Below are positions 6,258 to 62,229 of a DNA stretch of 64,000 nt, in pieces. The translations under genes and the position numbers were made by a program. Origin of the DNA: Olsenella sp. An270 (GTDB taxonomy: Bacteria > Actinomycetota > Coriobacteriia > Coriobacteriales > Atopobiaceae); the NCBI RefSeq assembly GCF_002159735.1, contig NZ_NFJF01000008.1:1-64000 (forward strand). Direction: 5' to 3'. Numbering within the stretch: position 1 is the first letter of the stretch; every line of letters begins with the position of its first letter. The notes beneath the pieces are model-generated. The model did not search any database, was not told the origin of the DNA, and worked only from the letters and a program-made list of their open reading frames with translations.

Positions 6258-6268
6258 ACGTCGGGGCC

Positions 6269-6486
6269 GAGAATCGCCGCTCTTGTCGCCCGCGTCTCCG
6301 GGAATCGGGGCCCTTGTACGGAGGGCTTCTAGGAATCCCCGGGGTTGTCACGGGTTGGCGCCCGAGAGCGGTACAAGGTCGCCAAAAGTTAGAGCCATCC
6401 GGGACAAACCCGGCAAATCCTAGAAGCGTGGGCGACAAGGGCGCGGATTCCCGGATCGCCGCGGGACAAGCCCCGCGATTTCTAGA
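6269..6486. repeat. 31-bp dyad array A
   Basis: Three left-pointing units have CTTGT-type cores starting at 6282, 6313 and 6344. Four right-pointing units have cores at 6371 (GTACAA), 6403, 6434 and 6465. Spacings are 31, 31, then 27 across the centre, then 32, 31, 31. Right-hand units read roughly GACAAGGGCG, then GATTCCTAGA, then a variable GC-rich stretch. The array fills the argH-purB gap and holds no gene. Confidence 0.85.
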
Positions 6487-6550
6487 CGCGGCCCGCCTGC
6501 GCTAGAATCAGACCCGAGAACAGCGCGCCGCAACCGCCGAGGAGGCCTCC

Positions 6551-11891: not shown

Positions 11892-13070
11892 ATGGCGAAC
11901 GCCTCCATGCTGGTGATTCAAGATGATGTCTACTCTGGTTCGCTGCACTTGGATGAGGTGCTTCTCTCCGCAATCTCGGAGGCGGAGGGAGGCGCCGCCG
12001 CCTTCGCGTTTGCGACTAAGAACGGTCTGAGCGCCATTTTTGATAGCGAGGAGTTTGCTGCCTTCTGTAGGAGCGGTCATCATTTTGAGCTTTACCTGGG
12101 GATTGATGCCGTTACCAATGTTGAGACCTTGGAGTATGCGGGAGAGCTGTCCAGCAAGCACGGCGGGAGGCTCATCGTCAGGGTGTACTACGACAGTGGG
12201 CACCCAGGCATCTTTCACCCCAAGATAAGCTGGTTTAAGAATCCCGAAGGTGATGGCTGCGTGGCATTCGTCGGATCGGGAAACCTCACGGTTGCGGGCC
12301 TGCAGGGGAACATCGAGGTCTTCTCATGGATGGAACAGGATAGGGCTTCGTTTGAGGAAACCCTGAGAACATGGAATGGATGGATTGACGCAGCCAGTAA
12401 GGCGGGCAGGGTCCATGATGTGGATGACCCCGAAGTTCTCGCGCGTGCCGAAATGAACGCATGGGGCCGCTCGCGATCCGCCCTTGTGCGCGGGATTGAT
12501 AGGGATGACATTTCAGCGGAGGCTATAGATAGCGTTCCGCTGAATGACGAGAACCTCATTATGATCTCCTGCGTCCCTCGCCAGCAGGGACGCGGTTGGT
12601 CACAGTTTGCGATGGCAAAGGAGTATTACACCGATTACTTCGAGTTTGAAGTCGATGAAAGTACGGGCGTTCCGAAATCGACTGGTCAGCGACGCGTGCT
12701 TCTTCAATCGGTTGGGGAGGACGGTACTCTCGGTAACCTCGAAAGCAGGGCGGGCAATATCAGCAGCACAAGTAGAAACTTCAGAATGGAGCTTGAGGCG
12801 GCGAGGGGAGTTGCTGTTCTTGATGGCGACAATCCCGTTGTTGTCTTCAGAAAAACGGGGGCTCGCTCGTATCTCTACGAGGTGTTCGGCTCGGATTCCC
12901 CGTGGTCTGCGAGACTCAAGGAGTTTGCTCGCCAGCACAACCCCGACCTTCGCGGAAATCAGCTCCCCAAGTGCCGCGCCTCAATCACAGAGTTGGCGAG
13001 CATAATGCCAGCGCTTCCCCTTCTTAAAATCGAGGGGCCTTGGGTTGAGTTGGACGGTGCCGGTGATTAA
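11892..13070 (+). CDS. PLD-family nuclease, probable restriction endonuclease
   Basis: 392 residues. A single phospholipase-D-type catalytic motif is visible: HPK at 109-111 (FHPKISWF) followed by VGSGNLTVAGLQGNIEV (GSGN 128-131, Glu142). One motif per chain is typical of PLD-fold nucleases such as Nuc, BfiI and NgoFVII, which form one active site per dimer. The C-terminal 250 residues have no motif I know and would be the place for a DNA-binding domain. ATG 11892 follows GGAAGGAG; an in-frame ATG at 11868 is less likely. The next gene, a DNA methyltransferase, overlaps its stop. GC content drops visibly from here to 15488, suggesting acquisition by transfer. Confidence 0.75.
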   Translation: MANASMLVIQDDVYSGSLHLDEVLLSAISEAEGGAAAFAFATKNGLSAIFDSEEFAAFCRSGHHFELYLGIDAVTNVETLEYAGELSSKHGGRLIVRVYYDSGHPGIFHPKISWFKNPEGDGCVAFVGSGNLTVAGLQGNIEVFSWMEQDRASFEETLRTWNGWIDAASKAGRVHDVDDPEVLARAEMNAWGRSRSALVRGIDRDDISAEAIDSVPLNDENLIMISCVPRQQGRGWSQFAMAKEYYTDYFEFEVDESTGVPKSTGQRRVLLQSVGEDGTLGNLESRAGNISSTSRNFRMELEAARGVAVLDGDNPVVVFRKTGARSYLYEVFGSDSPWSARLKEFARQHNPDLRGNQLPKCRASITELASIMPALPLLKIEGPWVELDGAGD

Positions 13071-14364
13071 GTTGTCCGGAAACGCGGAAGCGCTCGTCTA
13101 CTATCTTGGCAGCAAACGGAGAATGGCTGACTTGGTGGTTTGCGCCGCTCGTGACCTTGCGGGAGAGGGCGCCACCGCCATAGATCTATTCTCTGGCACG
13201 GGATCGACGTCTGTGGCTCTTGCCTGCAGCTTTGCTGTGACCTCTGTTGACGTTCAGGAATATTCACGTGTTATGTGCTCGGCCCTCATCGAGGAGGGCT
13301 CTCCTATCGTGGATGACAGGGTATTCCTGGACAGGTGGGCGTCGTTCAAGGAAGGCCTTCTTTGCCGCTACGGCAGGCTTGTTTCCTACGAGCAGGGGAT
13401 TCTTGGCTCGCCGGATGAAAACGCAGGAGAATTGTCCAGCATTATCGAACATGGCTGCCTGCTCGCGATGGACGGGATGGCAAGCCCCGAGCTCTCCGGA
13501 CTTATGCGCGAGAGCCTCGTCACCCCCCTTCCCGATGGGCTCACCGATACGATTGTTCGCTACTATGGAGGCACGTACTTCTCGTACCTTCAGGCTGTCG
13601 AGCTATCTGCGGCCTGTTCTGCCGCTCGCACCTTCGATGGATGGCAGCGCGACCGCTACCTAGCCTCGGTGATTTGCGCTGCGAGTCATTGCGGCAGCAC
13701 AGTGGGCGGGCAGTTTGCTCAGCCGCTGAGAACTGTCGATCGACGGGGATTAGTCAAGACGAAGACAATACGTAAGGCGACGGCCTGTCGAGCTAAGAGT
13801 GTCTCGCGCGCGACTATGAGTGCCCTGGAAGAAATAGATGCGCTCAGAAAACCGGGTCCGCATAACACGGCCATACGAGCGGAGTGCCGCGAATGGCTCA
13901 GGGAGCAGAAGCCCCGGGCGGATGTCATATATGCCGATCCGCCCTACAGCCGCTATCACTACAGTCGCTACTATCACGTTCTCGAGACAATTGCTCGTGG
14001 TGATAGTCCGGACATCACCCCAAATCCAGCCACAGGTCGGCCGTCTCGCGGCATGTATCGAGCGGGACGCTATCAGTCTCCGTTTTCGACAAGAGGCGGC
14101 GCGTCCGGGGCATTTGAGGAGCTGTTTGTGGGGTGTTCGGCGAGCGCGCCGGCTCTTGTGCTCTCGTACTCCCCCTATCCGAGCGACCGGCCTTCGACGC
14201 CACGAATGATAACGATTGACGATTTGACCGCTTTGGCCAAGCAGAGCTATCGGCACGTTGACGTGGTGAAGGTTGATGACATCACTCACAGTAAGCTTAC
14301 GAAAAAAGAGTCCTTTCTCGAGACAAGCGAAACCGCGGAGCTGATGATTCTATGCAGGAACTAA
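13063..14364 (+). CDS. DNA adenine methyltransferase, D12/Dam-like
   Basis: About 433 residues. The N-terminal YYLGSKRRMADLV block and the SAM-binding motif DLFSGTGSTS (41-50) are followed much later by the catalytic DPPY (292-295, in YADPPYSRYHYSRYYH). Motif I before DPPY is the alpha-type order of N6-adenine methylases. GTG 13063 overlaps the stop of the nuclease gene by 8 bp, implying translational coupling; an upstream TTG (13045) is an alternative start. Its product should protect host DNA at the target of the upstream nuclease. Codon use is less GC-biased than in the flanking genes. Confidence 0.8.
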   Translation: MIKLSGNAEALVYYLGSKRRMADLVVCAARDLAGEGATAIDLFSGTGSTSVALACSFAVTSVDVQEYSRVMCSALIEEGSPIVDDRVFLDRWASFKEGLLCRYGRLVSYEQGILGSPDENAGELSSIIEHGCLLAMDGMASPELSGLMRESLVTPLPDGLTDTIVRYYGGTYFSYLQAVELSAACSAARTFDGWQRDRYLASVICAASHCGSTVGGQFAQPLRTVDRRGLVKTKTIRKATACRAKSVSRATMSALEEIDALRKPGPHNTAIRAECREWLREQKPRADVIYADPPYSRYHYSRYYHVLETIARGDSPDITPNPATGRPSRGMYRAGRYQSPFSTRGGASGAFEELFVGCSASAPALVLSYSPYPSDRPSTPRMITIDDLTALAKQSYRHVDVVKVDDITHSKLTKKESFLETSETAELMILCRN

Positions 14365-15488
14365 GTGGAATTCTGACGTCGGAAGCGGGTGGCCTTCTCG
14401 TTCGCGGTAACAACGTGAGGGTCCTCGACGCCTTTGGCGGACGCCTGTCTGGCAAGGCATGCTGTGTGTATATGGATCCGCCGTATCGCAACGGCGATAG
14501 CTACTCCCATTACCGAGATGAGGCCACGCACGAGGAGTGGATCAGCTACATGGCGTCGCTGTTGCCCAGAGTGTGGGACGTTGTTGCTGACGAGGGTAGC
14601 GTCTGGATTTCCATCGACGACGAGGAGATGGCCTACCTCAAAGTTCTATGTGACGTTCACTTTGGGCGTTCGTCGTACGTGGCAACGATTGTCTGGCAGC
14701 ACCGCACAACAAGAGAGAATCGTGCGGCGTTCTCGCATAATCACGAGTACCTCCTTGTTTACGCAAAGAACCCCGATCTGTTCAAGCGTACGCGGAACAA
14801 GATTGCAGCCCCCGACCTTGCCGATCGGTATAAGAATCCGGATGACGACCCCAGGGGACCGTGGCAGTCGATTACAGCGACGGCCCAAGCGGGACATGCC
14901 GTCCCGACGCAGTTCTATCCAGTAATCTCCCCGACAACAGGGAAGAGGAATATGCCCCCTAAGGGTCGCTGTTGGGTATATGCAGAGGACCGCATGAACG
15001 AAGAGATTGCTGCGGGGAATATTTGGTTCGGAAGCGACGGGAATGGCGTTCCAAGAATAAAGAGGTTTCTCAGGGACAAAATGCCGGAGGTTGTTCCCAA
15101 CACGCTTTGGACAGCCGATGAGGTTGGAACGACCATGAGCGCAAAAAAACAGCTGCTCAAAATGTTTCCGGATGACAAGGATGAGGTTTTTGAGACTCCA
15201 AAGCCGGAGGGACTGCTTGCTAGAATCATTGGGATTTCAACCAATCCTGGCGACATCGTCCTCGATCCGTTCCTCGGTTCGGGTACAACAGCTGCCGTTG
15301 CTCAGAAGATGGGAAGGCGTTATTTAGGAATCGATAGGAGCGAGAAGAGCTTTGAGGTCGCTCGCAGCCGGCTTGATGCGGTGATTGCGGGCGATCAGTC
15401 TGGGATTTCGGCAGACGTCTGCTGGAAGGGCGGAGGATTCTACCAAACCGCAACGCTTGTTGACGATCAGGTGCTCCTTAGCGCCTGA
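14352..15488 (+). CDS. site-specific DNA methyltransferase, beta-class (Mod-like)
   Basis: 378 residues. The catalytic DPPY comes first (42-45, in CCVYMDPPYRNGDSYS) and the SAM motif DPFLGSGTTAAVAQ comes late (from 305). This is the beta-class order seen in type III Mod subunits and many type II N4/N6 methylases. The start overlaps the previous methylase by 13 bp. Two methylases of different permuted classes beside one nuclease suggest an asymmetric recognition sequence with each enzyme modifying one strand. No helicase or Res subunit is present, so a type III system is unlikely. Confidence 0.82.
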   Translation: MQELSGILTSEAGGLLVRGNNVRVLDAFGGRLSGKACCVYMDPPYRNGDSYSHYRDEATHEEWISYMASLLPRVWDVVADEGSVWISIDDEEMAYLKVLCDVHFGRSSYVATIVWQHRTTRENRAAFSHNHEYLLVYAKNPDLFKRTRNKIAAPDLADRYKNPDDDPRGPWQSITATAQAGHAVPTQFYPVISPTTGKRNMPPKGRCWVYAEDRMNEEIAAGNIWFGSDGNGVPRIKRFLRDKMPEVVPNTLWTADEVGTTMSAKKQLLKMFPDDKDEVFETPKPEGLLARIIGISTNPGDIVLDPFLGSGTTAAVAQKMGRRYLGIDRSEKSFEVARSRLDAVIAGDQSGISADVCWKGGGFYQTATLVDDQVLLSA

Positions 15489-15524
15489 GGAGATGGGATG
15501 ACACCACGCCGCCCTCGGGTGACG

Positions 15525-15542
15525 TATACTCAAGTTTTGAGT
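15525..15542 (+). promoter_or_regulatory. purC promoter -10 with overlapping dyad
   Basis: TATACT (15525-15530) overlaps ACTCAA-gtt-TTGAGT (15528-15542), a perfect 6-bp inverted repeat near the expected transcription start. A repressor site is possible. The regulator is unknown. Confidence 0.5.
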
Positions 15543-15567
15543 GAAACGCCTAGGAAAGGTGGCCGGA

Positions 15568-16452
15568 ATGGCTGAGATGGAACTTCGCCCGGACTCGCAC
15601 GGCAAGGTCCGCGACATCTACGACTGCGGTGACAGCCTGCTCATGGTGGCGTCCGACCGCATCAGCGCCTATGACTTCATCCTGCCCGACGAGATCCCCT
15701 ACAAGGGCGAGATCCTCACGCGCATCTCCGCGTTCTGGTTCGACCGCTTCCAGGACCTCATCCCCAACCACATGATCTCCTGCGACGTGGCCGACCTCCC
15801 CGAGGAGTTCAAGCCCTACGCCGACTATCTGGCCGGCCGCTCCATGCTGGTCAAGAAGGCCCAGACCGTGCCCATCGAGTGCATCGTCCGCGGCTACCTC
15901 ACCGGCTCCGGCAAGAAGACCTACGACGAGGACGGCACCGTCTGCGGCATCAAGCTGCCCGACGGGCTGACCGAGGCCTCCAAGCTCCCCGAGCCCATCT
16001 TCACCCCGTCCACCAAGGCGGAGCTCGGCGACCACGACGAGAACATCTCGTTCGAGCGCTGCTGCGAGATCGTGGGCGCCGACGTCGCCGAGCAGCTGCG
16101 CGACGCGTCGCTCTCCATCTACAAGGCCGCGGCCGACTACGCCGCCGAGCAGGGCATCATCATCGCCGACACCAAGTTCGAGTTTGGCTTCATCGACGGC
16201 AGGCTCACGCTCATCGACGAGTGCCTCACGCCCGATTCGAGCCGCTTCTGGCCCGCCGACTCCTACGAGGAGGGCAAGGTCCAGCCTAGCTACGACAAGC
16301 AGTACGTCCGCGACTGGCTGCGCGCCAACTGGGACATGACCGGCGAGCCGCCGCGCATCCCCGCCGACGTCATCAAGGGCACCTCCGACCGCTACCAGGA
16401 GGCCTTCCAGATCATCACCGGCACCGAGTTCGCGCCCGCCCGCGCCCGCTAG
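15568..16452 (+). CDS. purC: SAICAR synthetase
   Basis: Phosphoribosylaminoimidazole-succinocarboxamide synthase joins aspartate to CAIR using ATP in purine synthesis. It has 294 residues, the usual size of the longer bacterial/yeast type. Typical segments are GKVRDIYDCGD, VASDRISAYDFIL near the N-terminus, VECIVRGYLTGSGKKTY as VPIECIVRGYLTGS, and LIDECLTPDSSRFW near the C-terminus. ATG 15568 follows AGGAAAGG; GTG 15541 would add nine residues. It is downstream of the restriction-modification island but with its own promoter. Confidence 0.96.
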   Translation: MAEMELRPDSHGKVRDIYDCGDSLLMVASDRISAYDFILPDEIPYKGEILTRISAFWFDRFQDLIPNHMISCDVADLPEEFKPYADYLAGRSMLVKKAQTVPIECIVRGYLTGSGKKTYDEDGTVCGIKLPDGLTEASKLPEPIFTPSTKAELGDHDENISFERCCEIVGADVAEQLRDASLSIYKAAADYAAEQGIIIADTKFEFGFIDGRLTLIDECLTPDSSRFWPADSYEEGKVQPSYDKQYVRDWLRANWDMTGEPPRIPADVIKGTSDRYQEAFQIITGTEFAPARAR

Positions 16453-24238: not shown

Positions 24239-25305
24239 CGCGGGTTCTCCCTGAACTCGAGGTTCGTGAGGCCGAGGGTGATGAGGTCGCCGTCGCGCAG
24301 GACGCACTCGTTGACGTCGACGTCGTTGACCAGCGTGCCGTTGGTGGAGCGGAGGTCGGCGATGTGCCAGTCGCGCCCGTCGAAGGAGAGCTCGGCGTGG
24401 GCGCGCGAGACGTTGGGGTCGCGCAGGACGACGCCCGCCTGCGAGCGCTCGCGGCCGATGACGGTGGACGGCGCGCTGGCGGTGTAGGTGCGGCCGCTCT
24501 GGCGGTCGATGAGCAGGCAGGTGACGGGCTGGGGCTCGGCGGGGGCGGCGCTCGCCGGGGCTCCGGCGGCAGCGGCATCGCCGACGCCGCGGCGCAGGTC
24601 GACGAGGGGGACGCTGCGACGCTGGGTCTGCGGGACGGGGACGGAGCCGGGGCCCTCGCCGGGCACCACGACCGGGGCGGGCCCGCCCAGCGGGACCGGC
24701 ATGGGGGTCGAGGCGGACGCCGAGGCGACGGGCAGGGGCTCGACGTCGGCCGGCATCACGTCCAGGCCGGCGTCTGCGGAGAGCGGGGCGGGCGCGGGCA
24801 CCGCCGCGGGCGCGACGGAGCGCGGCGTGGGCGCCTCCTGGCGACGGCCGCGCGGGTGGACCTGGGCGGCAGCGCCGCCGGCGCTCGAGTTGCCGGCGAG
24901 GAACGCACGCTCCTCCTCGCGCAGGCGGCCGAGGGTGCCCGCGTCGACGTTCTCGGCGAAGACGGCGAACTTGCCCGACTTGAGGCCGGGGTCGACCATG
25001 AAGCGCACGAGCGGGCTGCCCACGAACGCGTAGCCCCGCTTCTGGGCCTGGGCGGTCACGAAGGCCGCGGTCTCGTAGGTGATCTGCTCGTAGAGCGGGC
25101 GCATGAGGGAGTCGTCGGTGGCCGAGACGAGCACGGTGTAGAGGGCGGGCGCGGTGTCCACGCCGTCGATCTCATAGGTCTCGTTCTCCATCTCGCGCGC
25201 GGCGCGCTTGGCGAGCTTCTTGAACGAGAAGGGCTCGGTGTATCCCTGGGGGGCGGCCCCGAAGACAGAACCGATTCGGGACTCGAAGTCACTCAGAAAG
25301 CTCAT
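24235..25305 (-). CDS. fhaA: FhaA (DUF3662 plus FHA domain)
   Basis: 356 residues. Residues 1-125 match the DUF3662/FhaA N-terminal domain (MSFLSDFESRIGSVFG, then a VDPGLKSGKFAVFAE segment). A Pro/Ala/Val-rich linker of about 130 residues follows, then a C-terminal FHA domain with VIGRERSQAGVVL, SRAHAELSF and DLRSTNGTLVND. It binds threonine-phosphorylated partners of the PknB system in mycobacteria. Its start lies 17 bp inside the end of the upstream kinase gene. The long linker suggests a flexible scaffold. Confidence 0.93.
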   Translation of the reverse strand: MSFLSDFESRIGSVFGAAPQGYTEPFSFKKLAKRAAREMENETYEIDGVDTAPALYTVLVSATDDSLMRPLYEQITYETAAFVTAQAQKRGYAFVGSPLVRFMVDPGLKSGKFAVFAENVDAGTLGRLREEERAFLAGNSSAGGAAAQVHPRGRRQEAPTPRSVAPAAVPAPAPLSADAGLDVMPADVEPLPVASASASTPMPVPLGGPAPVVVPGEGPGSVPVPQTQRRSVPLVDLRRGVGDAAAAGAPASAAPAEPQPVTCLLIDRQSGRTYTASAPSTVIGRERSQAGVVLRDPNVSRAHAELSFDGRDWHIADLRSTNGTLVNDVDVNECVLRDGDLITLGLTNLEFRENPR

Positions 25306-27058
25306 CTAACTCCTCGCCTTCCGGGCCATCGTAGAGCGGGCCTCTCAGGACGGTCGCGATGCACATAAGCACACTCAAGAGTACCGCAAGGACGAGCGTC
25401 GACCAGTCGAGGGCTGCCCATATACCGCTATTCTCCACGGCGGCCGCGAGGAGGGCGGACCCTGCGAGGCACGCTAGGCCGAGGACCTGCCCAGCGATGC
25501 CGCTTGCAACCGACCCGCGCATCGCGAGTGCCGACGAGAGCGCCGCGCAGGCGAGCGACCCCGCGAGCAGGAGCCAGAACGCGGGGTCGGCCGCCTGCGC
25601 GAGCAGGGCGGAGACGAACGCGTCGGACACGAACGACGAGGACAGCGCCGCGTGGAAGACGACGCCGGCGAGGTAGCCGAGCAGCGTGGTGAGCGTCGCC
25701 GGGGCCGGGTCGAGCGCGTAGCCCGAGAGCGCGGCGCCGCAGGTCGGCGACGGGAGGCAGCAGGGCAGGAGCAGCGCGAGCGAGCTGAGCCGCTCCCGGC
25801 GCCCGACGACTGCCCACCAGACGAGGCCGCCGGCCGCCAGCACGGCGGCGACCAGGCCCGGCGCCGCCGTGCCCGACACGCTCGCGGCGAGCGCCGAGAC
25901 CAGCGCCGTGACGAGGAGCGGGGCGGAGACCGGCGGCCACGCGGCGCCGGCGAGGGCGCACACGAGCGGCGCGACCACGGCGGGGACGTCGCCCGCGAGC
26001 CACGGGACGTGCGGCGTCAGGAGCCTCAGGGCCGAGAAGGTCAGAAGCGCGGTCGCGAGGCGCGCGGCGAGCCCCTCGGGGAGGCGCAGGCCACCGCCCG
26101 CCCCGCCGCGGCTGACGAGCCCGCCGCCCGCGGGGTCGTCGTCCTCCTCGGCCTGGGCGACGAGCTCGCGCAGCGACTCGGCGCCCATCGAGGGGAGGCC
26201 GAGGTGCGGGACGAGCCCCTCGGCAAAGTCGAGGGCGTCCGCGTCGCGGCCCGACGGCTCGGGGGAGAGCTCGGTCAGCAGTGACGCCTCGGCGGCCGGG
26301 TCGATTCCCGGGCAGAGCCTGGTGAGGCGCCCCGGCCCCTTGGCGATGCGCCGCCGCGACTCCTCCGCGCTCTTTGCCAGGAACGGGTTGGAGCCGGTGA
26401 GCGCCTGCCAGATCACCACGGCGAGCGAGAAGACGTCGGTGCGCTCGTCCACCATGCCGCCGTCGATCTGCTCGGGCGGCATGTAGCCCACGGTGCCGCC
26501 GCGCGCGTCGCCGTAGCCGGCGGCCGAGGCCAGCGTCGCCATGCCAAAGTCGGCGAGCTTCACCACGCCCTGGCGGTCGATCATGATGTTGGTCGGCTTG
26601 ATGTCCAGGTGCAGCACGCGGTTCTCGTGCGCGAAGGCCAGGGCGCGCGCCACCCCCTGGAGCACGTGGGCGCACTCGTCGGGTGTGAGCCGGCCCCCCT
26701 CCACGCGGGCGAGCAGCTCCGCGAGGTTGAGGCCGTCGACGTACTCCATGACCAGGTAGGCGAAGGTGCCGTCGGACTCGAAGTCAAAGACGGTGACGAT
26801 GTTTGGGTGCCCGAGCATGCAGGCCGTGCGCGCCTCCGCCAGCGCCTCCGCGGCGGTGGTGCCCGTCTCGGTGGCGAGCGGCATGCGCTTGATCGCCACG
26901 CGGCGCTGCAGGCGCGTGTCCCAGCAGGTGCAGACCGTGCCAAAGCCCCCGCGACCGCGCCTCTCGAGCACGCGGTAGCGGCGGAGCAGGTACTCGTCGC
27001 GTGGCAGGGTCGCCGTCTGCAGGGGGGTGTGGTGCACCCTGTTGGGCGTGTCGCTCAC
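25289..27058 (-). CDS. Ser/Thr protein kinase with C-terminal polytopic membrane domain
   Basis: 589 residues, first gene of the cell-wall signalling operon. The kinase domain has GRGGFGTV (35-42), ATP lysine Lys57, HLDIKPTN (150-157, with leucine where HRD kinases have arginine) and DFG (170-172). After about residue 330 the protein turns strongly hydrophobic, with perhaps eight membrane segments rich in Ala/Leu/Val and no PASTA repeats. The HRD arginine is replaced, so activation-loop phosphorylation may not be needed. GTG 27058 has GAGGAG upstream. Its 3' end overlaps fhaA. Repeat array B lies just upstream, in the promoter region. Confidence 0.88.
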   Translation of the reverse strand: MSDTPNRVHHTPLQTATLPRDEYLLRRYRVLERRGRGGFGTVCTCWDTRLQRRVAIKRMPLATETGTTAAEALAEARTACMLGHPNIVTVFDFESDGTFAYLVMEYVDGLNLAELLARVEGGRLTPDECAHVLQGVARALAFAHENRVLHLDIKPTNIMIDRQGVVKLADFGMATLASAAGYGDARGGTVGYMPPEQIDGGMVDERTDVFSLAVVIWQALTGSNPFLAKSAEESRRRIAKGPGRLTRLCPGIDPAAEASLLTELSPEPSGRDADALDFAEGLVPHLGLPSMGAESLRELVAQAEEDDDPAGGGLVSRGGAGGGLRLPEGLAARLATALLTFSALRLLTPHVPWLAGDVPAVVAPLVCALAGAAWPPVSAPLLVTALVSALAASVSGTAAPGLVAAVLAAGGLVWWAVVGRRERLSSLALLLPCCLPSPTCGAALSGYALDPAPATLTTLLGYLAGVVFHAALSSSFVSDAFVSALLAQAADPAFWLLLAGSLACAALSSALAMRGSVASGIAGQVLGLACLAGSALLAAAVENSGIWAALDWSTLVLAVLLSVLMCIATVLRGPLYDGPEGEELDELSE

Positions 27059-27129
27059 GGCGTCTCCTCGTTTCAGCTGCGTTGGCCGTGCGAGGATATT
27101 TTAGCGCTTGCGGGCGGGGTTCCGCGCGT

Positions 27130-27464
27130 CCGGAAATCGCCGCCCTTGTCCGCCGCGATTCCGGGAATGCGCGCCTTTGTCGCCCGTCGCCCTAAGAATC
27201 CCCGCCCTTGTCGCTCGCGACTCTAAGAATCCCCGCCCTTGTCGGCGGGCGTTCTAGAAAACGCCGCCCTTGCACGGGTTTCGTCGTCCCAGCCCGTACA
27301 AGGGCCGCGATTCCTAGAGTCCCCCAGGACAAGGGCGGAGATTCTAGGAAGCGCCGAGGACAAGGGCCGCGATTCCTAGAGTCCCCCAGAACAAACCCGC
27401 CGATTCCTAGAACGGCGGGCGACAAGGGCGGCGATTCCCGGGCCCCACAACAAGGGCGCAGAAA
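27130..27464. repeat. 31-bp dyad array B (largest)
   Basis: Five left-pointing cores (27145, 27176, 27207, 27238, 27269) are exactly 31 bp apart. Across the centre, 27 bp leads to GTACAA at 27296, then right-pointing cores follow at 27328, 27359, 27390 and 27421 (32, 31, 31, 31) and a last one at 27449 (28). It occupies the divergent gap between the kinase operon and tRNA-Leu. No gene is visible in it. Confidence 0.88.
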
Positions 27465-27468
27465 ACAC

Positions 27469-27497
27469 TTGGCAGCGCGCGACGGATGCGCTACGAT
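27469..27497 (+). promoter_or_regulatory. promoter of tRNA-Leu
   Basis: TTGGCA (27469-27474) and TACGAT (27492-27497) are 17 bp apart, 10 bp before the tRNA and directly after repeat array B. Confidence 0.7.
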
Positions 27498-27507
27498 AGC
27501 TCAGCAC

Positions 27508-27594
27508 GCGGGCGTGGCGGAATTGGCAGACGCGTACGGTTCAGGTCCGTATGGGGGCAACTCCATGAAGGTTCAAGTCCTTTCGCCCGCACCA
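27508..27594 (+). tRNA. tRNA-Leu (anticodon CAG)
   Basis: The 87-nt class II tRNA has acceptor GCGGGCG/CGCCCGC, an anticodon stem TACGG/CCGTA with loop TTCAGGT, a long variable arm (TGGGGGCAACTCCA) and encoded CCA. Confidence 0.95.
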
Positions 27595-45591: not shown

Positions 45592-45599
45592 CTCGGCCG

Positions 45600-45790
45600 T
45601 CTAAGAATCGTGCCCCTTGTCCGGGGCGCTTCTAGAGAACGCGCCCCTTGTCCCGAGTGCGTCTGGAAATCGCCGGGATTGTCCGATTAGAGGGCCGCCA
45701 AACGGTACAAGCCCCCGGATTCTTAGACGCGACAAGGACAAGGGCGGCGATTCCCGGACACGCCCCGGACAAGGGCGGCGATTCCGGGAA
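45600..45790. repeat. 31-bp dyad array C
   Basis: Three left-pointing cores (45616, 45647, 45678) are 31 bp apart. The centre step is 27 bp to GTACAA at 45705, then right-pointing cores at 45737 and 45768 (32, 31). Units end in CTAG or CCGG words (TTCTTAG, TTCCCGG). It lies between the purH terminator and the next gene's promoter, whose TAGAAT -10 is at 45813-45818. Confidence 0.85.
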
Positions 45791-45852
45791 GGCCCCGCCC
45801 CCGCCTCCGCGCTAGAATGTGGGCCTCACGTCATCGAGCGAGGGGAGGGCGC

Positions 45853-58140: not shown

Positions 58141-58409
58141 GCCCTTGTTCCGCGCTGCCCTAGAAAACCGGGCCTTTGTCCTGCGACACTCTAGAAAACC
58201 GGGTCCTTGTCCTGAGAGCCTCTAATAATTCGTGCCCTTGTCCAGGCGGAGGCCCCTATGCGCGTACAAGGGCGCCGTTTTCTAGAAGGCCGGCCGACAA
58301 GGGCGGCGATTCTTAGAGCGGCGGGCGACAAGGGCGCGCATTCCTAGAATCGCCTCAGACAAGCCCCGCGATTCCTAGAACCGCCCCAGACAAGGGCGCC
58401 AAATCCTAG
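58141..58409. repeat. 31-bp dyad array D
   Basis: Left-pointing cores at 58144, 58175, 58206 and 58237 (31, 31, 31). The centre step is 27 bp to GTACAA at 58264, then right-pointing cores at 58296, 58327, 58358 and 58389 (32, 31, 31, 31). Units carry TTCTAGAA and CTAGAAAACC words. The last CCTAG (58405-58409) supplies the stop codon of the convergent PAP2 gene. Confidence 0.88.
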
Positions 58410-59110
58410 GCGTCGTCTGCCTGCCGCGGCTCGTCCACCGCGACGAACGTGGGCGCCACCACGCGGGTGTAGAAGACCAGCCACACGAGCGAGACGCAGA
58501 ACCCGGCGAGCACGTCGGACGCGTAGTGGACGCCCAGGTAGATGCGGCTCACGCCCACCATCACGATCACGAGGACAAACAGGGCGCACCACACCACGCG
58601 CATGACGTCGCGGCGGTGGTAGCGCCAGACCATCCAGATGAGCAGGCCAAAGAACGCCATCGCCACCATCGAGTGGCCGGACGGGAAGCTGTAGCCGCTC
58701 TCCGAGATGAGGCGGAACCCGTCGGGGCGCGGGCGCTGCACGAGGTACTTGAGCACGGTGTTGAGCGCGACCACGCAGACCAGGTTCACGGCCACGCACC
58801 AGCCCGGGGCCTTGCCCGGCGCCAGCGCGGCGATCACGGCCGCCATCACCGCGAGCACCACCACCGACGCCAGGGAGGTGAACGCCTCCATGACGGGCGT
58901 GAGCGTGTCGGAGCGAAGCCGCTCAACGAAGAGCTGGTAGGCGGCAACGTCAAGACGCATGATCTCCCCGCCTGCCACCTCGCCGAGCAGCCACACAAAG
59001 ACGAGCGCGGCGCCGAGAAGGACCACCACGCGCGGGTTCTTCCTGAGAAGGCCCAGGGAGCCGCGCGCGACGTCGCGCGCTCCCCGGGCGAGCTCCTGAC
59101 GACGGGACAT
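58406..59110 (-). CDS. PAP2-family membrane phosphatase
   Basis: 234 residues, about six membrane helices. The phosphatase signature is complete: KYLVQRPRP (K-x6-RP), PSGHS, and SRIYLGVHYASD (SR-x5-H). The family includes undecaprenyl- and phosphatidylglycerol-phosphate phosphatases, so lipid carrier recycling is a plausible role. ATG 59110 lies 2 bp after the thioredoxin stop, making a two-gene operon. Its stop codon (plus-strand CTA 58406-58408) is within the last unit of repeat array D. Confidence 0.9.
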   Translation of the reverse strand: MSRRQELARGARDVARGSLGLLRKNPRVVVLLGAALVFVWLLGEVAGGEIMRLDVAAYQLFVERLRSDTLTPVMEAFTSLASVVVLAVMAAVIAALAPGKAPGWCVAVNLVCVVALNTVLKYLVQRPRPDGFRLISESGYSFPSGHSMVAMAFFGLLIWMVWRYHRRDVMRVVWCALFVLVIVMVGVSRIYLGVHYASDVLAGFCVSLVWLVFYTRVVAPTFVAVDEPRQADDA

Positions 59111-61929: not shown

Positions 61930-61947
61930 GCGCTGGGGGCGGCTGAA

Positions 61948-62136
61948 CCTAGGAATTGCCGCCCTTGTCCTGCGAGCGTCTAGAAAACCGGGGCCTTGTC
62001 CGCCGCGGCCTCCGTATGGCCGTACAACCCCGCCGTTTTCTAGGGAAACACGCGACAAGGGCGCAGATTGCTAGATGTGCGCTGGACAACCTCCCAAAAT
62101 CCTAGAAGCGTCCCTGCCAAGCCCGCGGTTTACCGG
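61948..62136. repeat. 31-bp dyad array E
   Basis: Two left-pointing cores (61964, 61995) 31 bp apart, a 27-bp centre step to GTACAA at 62022, then right-pointing cores at 62054, 62085 and a degenerate one (GCCAAG) at 62116 (32, 31, 31). It fills the pgi-DUF362 gap. The promoter -10 TACAAT of the next gene is at 62191-62196. Confidence 0.85.
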
Positions 62137-62229
62137 ATCCCGGTCCGCCGCCAACCTTGGCGACGCCGCGTCTCTTGCGTTGGCGCTGGCGTACAATCCC
62201 CCTGAGGGAAAAACGAGGAGAGGGGACGC

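What the first reader, a model, noticed from the sequence alone, without database searches (positions are those of the whole stretch)
27130..27464. 31-bp period equals about three helical turns, and unit tips alternate CTAG and CCGG
Seen: in the largest array the cores are exactly 31 bp apart over five left and four right units. Tips read TTCTAGAA, CCTAG or TTCCCGGG-like. Known: B-DNA has about 10.5 bp per turn, so 31 bp puts the units on one face, and CTAG is a rare tetranucleotide in many bacteria. Inference: phased cooperative binding by a nucleoid or chromosome-organising protein, with CTAG/CCGG interchange suggesting a tolerated or selected central step.
Basis: partly seen in the sequence, partly recalled or inferred. 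Interest (0 to 1): 0.7.

Follow-up and report, generated by a model that had tools for sequence, protein, structure and literature searches.

The report
Helix-phased inverted DNA-site arrays
A group of gut bacteria carries dozens of strictly built DNA arrays at gene ends, in which a short motif repeats every three (in two relatives every four) turns of the double helix and flips direction at a fixed centre, so an unknown protein probably lines up along one face of the DNA there.

Summary
The array at 27127-27444 is real: five units on the minus strand, then five on the plus strand, exactly 31 bp apart, converging on a centre 25 bp wide. It is one of 46 such arrays read in this genome (five in the window). 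In G000, 247 of 256 same-strand spacings are 31 bp and 34 of 45 centres are 25 bp. The same grammar, mostly at the same gene junctions, occurs in three other Thermophilibacter-group genomes. Two further genomes carry a diverged motif with the same 25-bp centre but 41-bp spacing. Over seven genomes, 912 distances between the units' AA steps fall at 1, 2, 3, 4, 5, 6, 9, 10 or 12 helical turns. Unit cores are kept while spacers diverge, and left and right halves do not covary. This fits cooperative protein binding on one DNA face, not a hairpin. CTAG is 34 times denser inside arrays than outside. The binding protein is unknown. A nucleoprotein boundary between transcription units is my best guess at function, inferred only. 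REP-type transposase (RAYT) is absent from this genome. Arrays are missing from close relatives.

The parts
27127..27273 (-). left half of the array in the finding: five 31-bp units, cores (first A) at 27273, 27242, 27211, 27180, 27149
27274..27297 (.). 24-bp centre between the innermost cores (core-to-core 25 bp); weakly conserved asymmetric AGGnCCTT-like middle across 62 centres (information 7.0 bits against 4.7 in shuffles)
27298..27444 (+). right half: five 31-bp units, cores at 27298, 27329, 27360, 27391, 27422; a tipless ACAAGGGC follows at 27450
6264..6488 (.). second array: 3 left and 4 right units, 31 bp, centre 25 bp
45598..45791 (.). third array: 3 left and 3 right units, 31 bp, centre 25 bp
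58157..58412 (.). fourth array: 3 left and 5 right units, 31 bp, centre 25 bp; a further tipless left core at 58148
61946..62139 (.). fifth array: 2 left and 4 right units, 31 bp, centre 25 bp
27508..27594 (+). tRNA-Leu(CAG); its promoter (TTGGCA near 27470, TACGAT near 27493, read by eye) starts just beyond the array
   Evidence: sequence
25289..27058 (-). gene divergent from the tRNA (protein-kinase-like by eye; not searched); the array lies between the two promoter regions

Best explanation
Each array is a double-stranded DNA platform for a sequence-specific DNA-binding protein that has not been identified. One protein unit reads a 22-bp site (consensus GACAAGGGCggcGATTCyTAGA). Neighbours bind on the same DNA face because sites are a whole number of helical turns apart (31 bp, or 41 bp in G055/G108). 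Two stacks of opposite polarity meet at a fixed centre, which keeps the same helical phase, so the whole array forms one cooperative, mirror-symmetric nucleoprotein structure. SHOWN by sequence: site, spacing, polarity, centre, phasing, placement between genes, conservation of cores but not spacers, absence of left-right pairing. INFERRED: that a protein binds, that it binds cooperatively, and that the structure acts as a boundary between transcription units (terminator or gene end on one side, next promoter on the other), for example by constraining supercoils or bridging DNA. I put the phased-protein part at about 0.85 and the boundary role at about 0.35.
For: Exact geometry: G000 247/256 spacings of 31 bp, 34/45 centres of 25 bp; G117 139/143, G102 68/70, G104 12/12, G036 145/157 spacings of 31 bp. 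G055 and G108: diverged motif, centre 25 bp in 24 of 33, spacing 41 bp in 125 of 151 and 31 bp in 23. All 912 AA-step distances near whole turns. Seven of 17 G055 arrays sit at a junction where G000-type genomes have an array. 66 orthologous array pairs: nine core positions 92.6% identical, spacers 44.9% (non-orthologous 91.3% and 32.9%), unit number differs in 55 of 66. Left and right halves of one array do not pair better than halves of different arrays (0.469 against 0.465, sd 0.010; 708 of 2000 permutations reach it), so a hairpin is not what is kept. Arrays are intergenic: 25 tandem, 11 convergent, 4 divergent, 3 at contig ends; convergent 11/40 against 7/85 of other gaps of 60 bp or more (p = 0.006). 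The array in the finding lies between two divergent promoter regions, so it need not be transcribed.
Against: No protein was found, and no binding was measured. Arrays are absent or nearly so in most of the genus (22 of 31 genomes have no match), including G120, the closest relative on serS, so the function is dispensable. The RNA would fold very stably (z = -10.6), as any inverted array would, and arrays favour convergent gene ends, so a role in the transcript is not excluded. The centre shows a weak left-right association (79 of 2000 permutations), and one orthologous pair (L087/L142) shows a matched two-sided change in the innermost units (alignment). Distances within and between related genomes are not independent, so the null overstates the strength. 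Gene calls come from my own simple caller, which ignores tRNAs.
Confidence: 0.6

Rival explanations
1. REP/BIME- or REPIN-like miniature mobile repeats spread by a REP-associated transposase (RAYT), with hairpins as the moving form.
For: Dispersed, intergenic, inverted arrangement, many copies, patchy among relatives; literature describes BIMEs as regularly spaced REPs in alternating orientation (PMC2817692, passages).
Against: No RAYT-family (PF01797) match in G000, the genome with 46 arrays, while array-less relatives have it (28 of 31 genus genomes match). Units do not alternate; they keep one polarity per half. No left-right covariation. Arrays stay at orthologous junctions: 16 of 20 in G117, 16 of 20 in G036, 10 of 13 in G102 with both flanks matching.
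Confidence: 0.12
2. The arrays work in RNA: long hairpins that end transcription or protect 3' ends from either strand.
For: Very stable predicted fold; excess of convergent junctions.
Against: Spacers pair at chance level and variable positions do not covary; nearly invariant sequence inside the stems is not needed for a hairpin; the finding's array lies between divergent promoters; spacing 31 or 41 and centres of 4, 14, 25, 36, 46 bp follow the B-DNA turn.
Confidence: 0.12
3. The arrays are paired ends of gene cassettes or recombination sites: transposase- or recombinase-binding arrays that let the DNA between two arrays move.
For: In T. provencensis (G104) two arrays bound a segment 97-100% identical to G000 inside over most of the parts read, while outside is 86.6% on one side (array included) and unmatched on the other; in G121 the only two full arrays flank an ABC-transporter pair.
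Against: Most arrays sit singly between housekeeping-type genes and are shared between species; no recombinase gene was looked for systematically, and none stood out at the arrays examined by Pfam; no target-site duplications were noticed by eye at the sites compared.
Confidence: 0.12

Closest known systems
REP / BIME / REPIN elements
   Same: Dispersed, intergenic, inverted organisation; proposed role in chromosome organisation and termination (PMC2817692 passages, PMC3116915 abstract).
   Different: Here units are asymmetric, keep one polarity per half, sit at exact helical-turn spacings, and no RAYT is present in G000.
Lrp/AsnC-type regulators on regularly spaced sites
   Same: Sites on one DNA face, two or three helical turns apart (PMC2995911 passage); in BarR the spacer differs between species by about one turn (PMC10201364 passages). 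The best analogue of how it may work.
   Different: Lrp sites are short and semi-palindromic, in few control regions; here sites are 22 bp, asymmetric, in two opposed stacks, at 46 places. No Lrp protein was tested.
H-NS-type nucleation at helically phased sites
   Same: Phased high-affinity sites seed a nucleoprotein structure (PMC5418058 passages).
   Different: H-NS sites are AT-rich (its abstract); these are GC-rich and exactly spaced.
MITEs with inverted ends
   Same: Non-coding, inverted halves (recalled; no MITE set was compared).
   Different: Variable number of units per half, conserved positions between species, no duplication noticed at ends.

Membership tests
REP/BIME/REPIN | RAYT transposase (PF01797) in the genome | tested here: not met
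   0 matches in G000; 28 of 31 genus genomes match, array-less ones included
REP/BIME/REPIN | palindromic unit or doublet kept as a hairpin | tested here: not met
   no left-right covariation, spacers at chance
REP/BIME/REPIN | dispersed in intergenic DNA in many copies | tested here: met
REP/BIME/REPIN | alternating orientation of units | tested here: not met
   minus units then plus units in 42 of 43 G000 groups (41 with a centre under 60 bp, 1 with 86 bp); 1 is one-sided at a contig end
Lrp/AsnC-type site array | sites a whole number of helical turns apart | tested here: met
Lrp/AsnC-type site array | binding by an Lrp/AsnC-family octamer | not tested
   no protein candidate examined
structured RNA / terminator | compensatory changes across the stem | tested here: not met
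   centre alone is borderline (79 of 2000)
structured RNA / terminator | match to a described RNA family | tested here: not met
   only tRNAs at Rfam gathering thresholds in the window
MITE / transposon ends | insertion at differing sites in close relatives | tested here: inconclusive
   most sites shared, but 10 of 17 G055 arrays are at junctions without a known array in the other genomes read
phage or plasmid element | present in phage or plasmid records | tested here: not met
   no match in either collection

The most novel reading that the evidence does not exclude
A lineage-specific chromosome system: a dedicated protein polymerises in helical register from a fixed centre in both directions on several dozen intergenic platforms and insulates neighbouring transcription units. 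Its site sequence and its step length (three or four turns) change together across the whole genome between relatives, and the complete set is lost when the protein is lost.
Probability: 0.3. Interest if true: 0.88.

Novelty: new variant of a known kind. Interest (0 to 1): 0.75.

Why it matters
Nature has run the classic helical-phasing experiment here: some of the same intergenic junctions carry arrays stepped at three turns in some species and at four turns in others, with the same centre. That makes cooperative one-face assembly on bacterial DNA directly testable, offers a natural set of several dozen graded arrays per genome, and may reveal a new chromosome-organising or insulating protein in gut actinobacteria. 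I found no description in print in the searches made, which cover open-licence papers only.

Tried and rejected
Hairpin pairing as the conserved feature: rejected by the permutation test. Strict alternation of CTAG and CCGG: rejected. RAYT as the driver: rejected for G000. Known RNA family: none. Phage or plasmid origin: no match. Deciding gain against loss: the serS tree joins G000 with array-less G120 and G102 with array-less G112, but trees of other segments differ and are weakly supported, so transfer between species blurs the order; I did not settle it. Looking for the binding protein next to arrays: neighbours looked ordinary (ten proteins searched in Pfam). My first reading (about 70 arrays in G000, as in my note) was wrong, because one array gives several overlapping matches; with the units read gives 46. 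Lrp papers were read as passages only, as were those; outline and abstract; other papers as search listings.

Full report
WHAT IS THERE. The stretch 27127-27444 holds ten copies of a 31-bp unit. Five read on the minus strand and five on the plus strand, and they converge on a centre. The unit's fixed part is about 22 bp, GACAAGGGCggcGATTCyTAGA; the remaining 9 bp are free. The distance between the first bases of the two innermost cores is 25 bp in all five arrays of the window: 6264-6488, 27127-27444, 45598-45791, 58157-58412 and 61946-62139.

GENOME-WIDE. I searched the host genome (G000, 2.01 Mb in 14 contigs) for ACAAGGGCNNNGATTC: 155 matches with at most one mismatch, none for the reversed pattern. 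I read the surrounding stretches with a weight matrix. That is about one array per 44 kb. One search also lists a possible array at the end of contig 9 that I did not read.

GRAMMAR. Innermost units often read CCGTACAAGG, with T before the core in 43% against 1-3% elsewhere. Outermost units tend to lose the TA step of the tip: TA 33/85 against 185/245, CG 26/85 against 24/245. So CTAG and CCGG do not alternate; CG is a mark of the array's ends. CTAG is 15.07/kb inside and 0.44/kb outside; about half of the outside ones are at stop codons. The 24-bp centre is weakly conserved (62 centres, 7.0 bits against a shuffled mean of 4.7 and maximum of 4.9).

RELATIVES. An exact two-unit pattern scanned against 84,980 species gave 26 stretches, labelled Olsenella, Atopobium, Collinsella, Thermophilibacter or uncultured bacterium. 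In the host's genus, 9 of 31 genomes match the array model at E <= 0.001: G000, G036, G102, G117 richly, G055, G108, G104, G121 and G105 less. In the family sample only G000 and G036 of 101 had more than one exact unit-pattern match. Arrays of G117, G036 and G102 obey the same rules. 16 of 20, 16 of 20 and 10 of 13 of the arrays I read there have both flanks orthologous to a G000 array, so most arrays are shared landmarks, not recent insertions. Some junctions in G117, G036 and G102 hold two arrays side by side.

THE SPACING SWITCH. G055 and G108 carry a diverged unit, about GrGAAssyCGCCGATTCCGGGACG. Same inverted layout, centre 25 bp in 24 of 33 (others 4, 14, 36 and 26), but units 41 bp apart in 125 of 151 cases; 31 bp (23 cases) occurs near the centre. 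Seven of 17 G055 arrays lie at a junction where a G000-type genome also has one. The unit pattern of this type occurs 102 times in G055, 96 in G108, 11 in G121 and at most 5 times in any other of 140 family genomes (up to two mismatches). G121's two arrays also step mostly by 41 bp, with centres of 15 bp.

HELICAL PHASE. Measured between the nearly invariant AA steps, the distances, including across the centre, are 9, 19-20, 29-34, 40-42, 51, 61-63, 91-92, 101 and 123 bp: 912 distances, all near whole turns of 10.2-10.3 bp (the two worst are single cases of 33 and 34 bp); 0 of 2000 random sets did as well even with the period optimised (a test on offsets alone). These distances are not all independent, since relatives share arrays, and distances over 130 bp and plus-to-minus junctions between side-by-side arrays were left out. 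In addition a one-sided run in G116 repeats CGACAAGGAC every 21 bp, two turns.

WHAT IS KEPT. Between orthologous arrays the nine core positions are 92.6% identical and the spacers 44.9%, against 32.9% for unrelated arrays; the number of units differs in 55 of 66 pairs. Neighbouring units sometimes share a spacer (8-bp spacer at least 85% alike in 3.5% of adjacent pairs against 0.5% between arrays), which suggests growth by tandem duplication. Motif, step and place are kept; sequence between is not. Left and right halves of the same array are no more complementary than halves of different arrays (the 31 G000 arrays with a 25-bp centre). A conserved hairpin is therefore unlikely, though the RNA would fold strongly. 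Against this, the centre is borderline (79 of 2000) and one orthologous pair shows a matched two-sided change.

SETTING. Arrays fill gaps between genes: 25 tandem, 11 convergent, 4 divergent, 3 at contig ends. Compared with other gaps of 60 bp or more in the same stretches, convergent junctions are over-represented (11/40 against 7/85, p = 0.006) and divergent ones not significantly fewer (4/40 against 20/85, p = 0.09). The caller ignores tRNAs, so the finding's own junction is counted as tandem although gene and tRNA diverge. There the array separates the promoter regions of a divergent gene and tRNA-Leu; relatives without the array have a shorter gap, and three (G120, G112, G102) also lack the TTGGCA element.

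LOSS OR ABSENCE. At the junction near 58 kb the gap is 327 bp in G000 but 53-82 bp in G121, G055 and G120; G116, G119 and G112 hold another repeat family there. G120 is nearest to G000 on serS yet has no array in the model search (it is an 89% complete draft). Arrays are thus dispensable, or their loss follows loss of a partner; I could not decide.

CONCLUSION. The best reading is a cooperative, mirror-symmetric, one-face protein array on double-stranded DNA at gene boundaries. The protein and its role are inferred.

Noticed in passing
flanks of G000 arrays (L057-L088, window): GAGAAGGAC/GAGAAGAAC pointing away from the array occurs 14 times against 2.1 expected (5 times the other way, 2.1 expected) just outside arrays; similar words sit in terminator loops of relatives seen.
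   Followed up: partly
L148 and L230 (G104, T. provencensis) against L077 (G000): Two arrays bound a PTS/SIS/HAD gene block that is 97-100% identical between two species over most of the parts read, while DNA outside is 86.6% identical or unmatched.
   Followed up: partly
L281 (G121): The only two full arrays of this one-contig genome flank an ABC transporter/FtsX pair whose ATPase starts with a RelB-like stretch.
   Followed up: partly
L194, L196, L197, L205, L213, L214: G116, G119 and G112 carry another inverted repeat family (AATAACACGCAGAAT ... ATTCTGCGTGTTATT) at the same junctions.
   Followed up: no
L194:1342-1446 (G116): Direct repeats with core CGACAAGGAC every 21 bp, two helical turns, one-sided.
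   Followed up: no
L119, L120, L121 (G120, G112, G102) upstream of tRNA-Leu: The array junction is shortened so far that the TTGGCA element is gone; a TTGCGG with about 17-bp spacing to TACGAT remains (read by eye).
   Followed up: no
G000 C7 start and end, C10 end (L066, L074, L084): Contigs break at arrays next to an identical 96-97 bp stretch, probably a repeated gene or element.
   Followed up: no
L083 (G000 C10, 175.6 and 177.2 kb): Two neighbouring arrays share nearly the same centre in opposite orientation, as after an inversion or duplication.
   Followed up: no
window 12001-16000: G+C drops to 0.57 against about 0.68 around it, a possible foreign segment.
   Followed up: no
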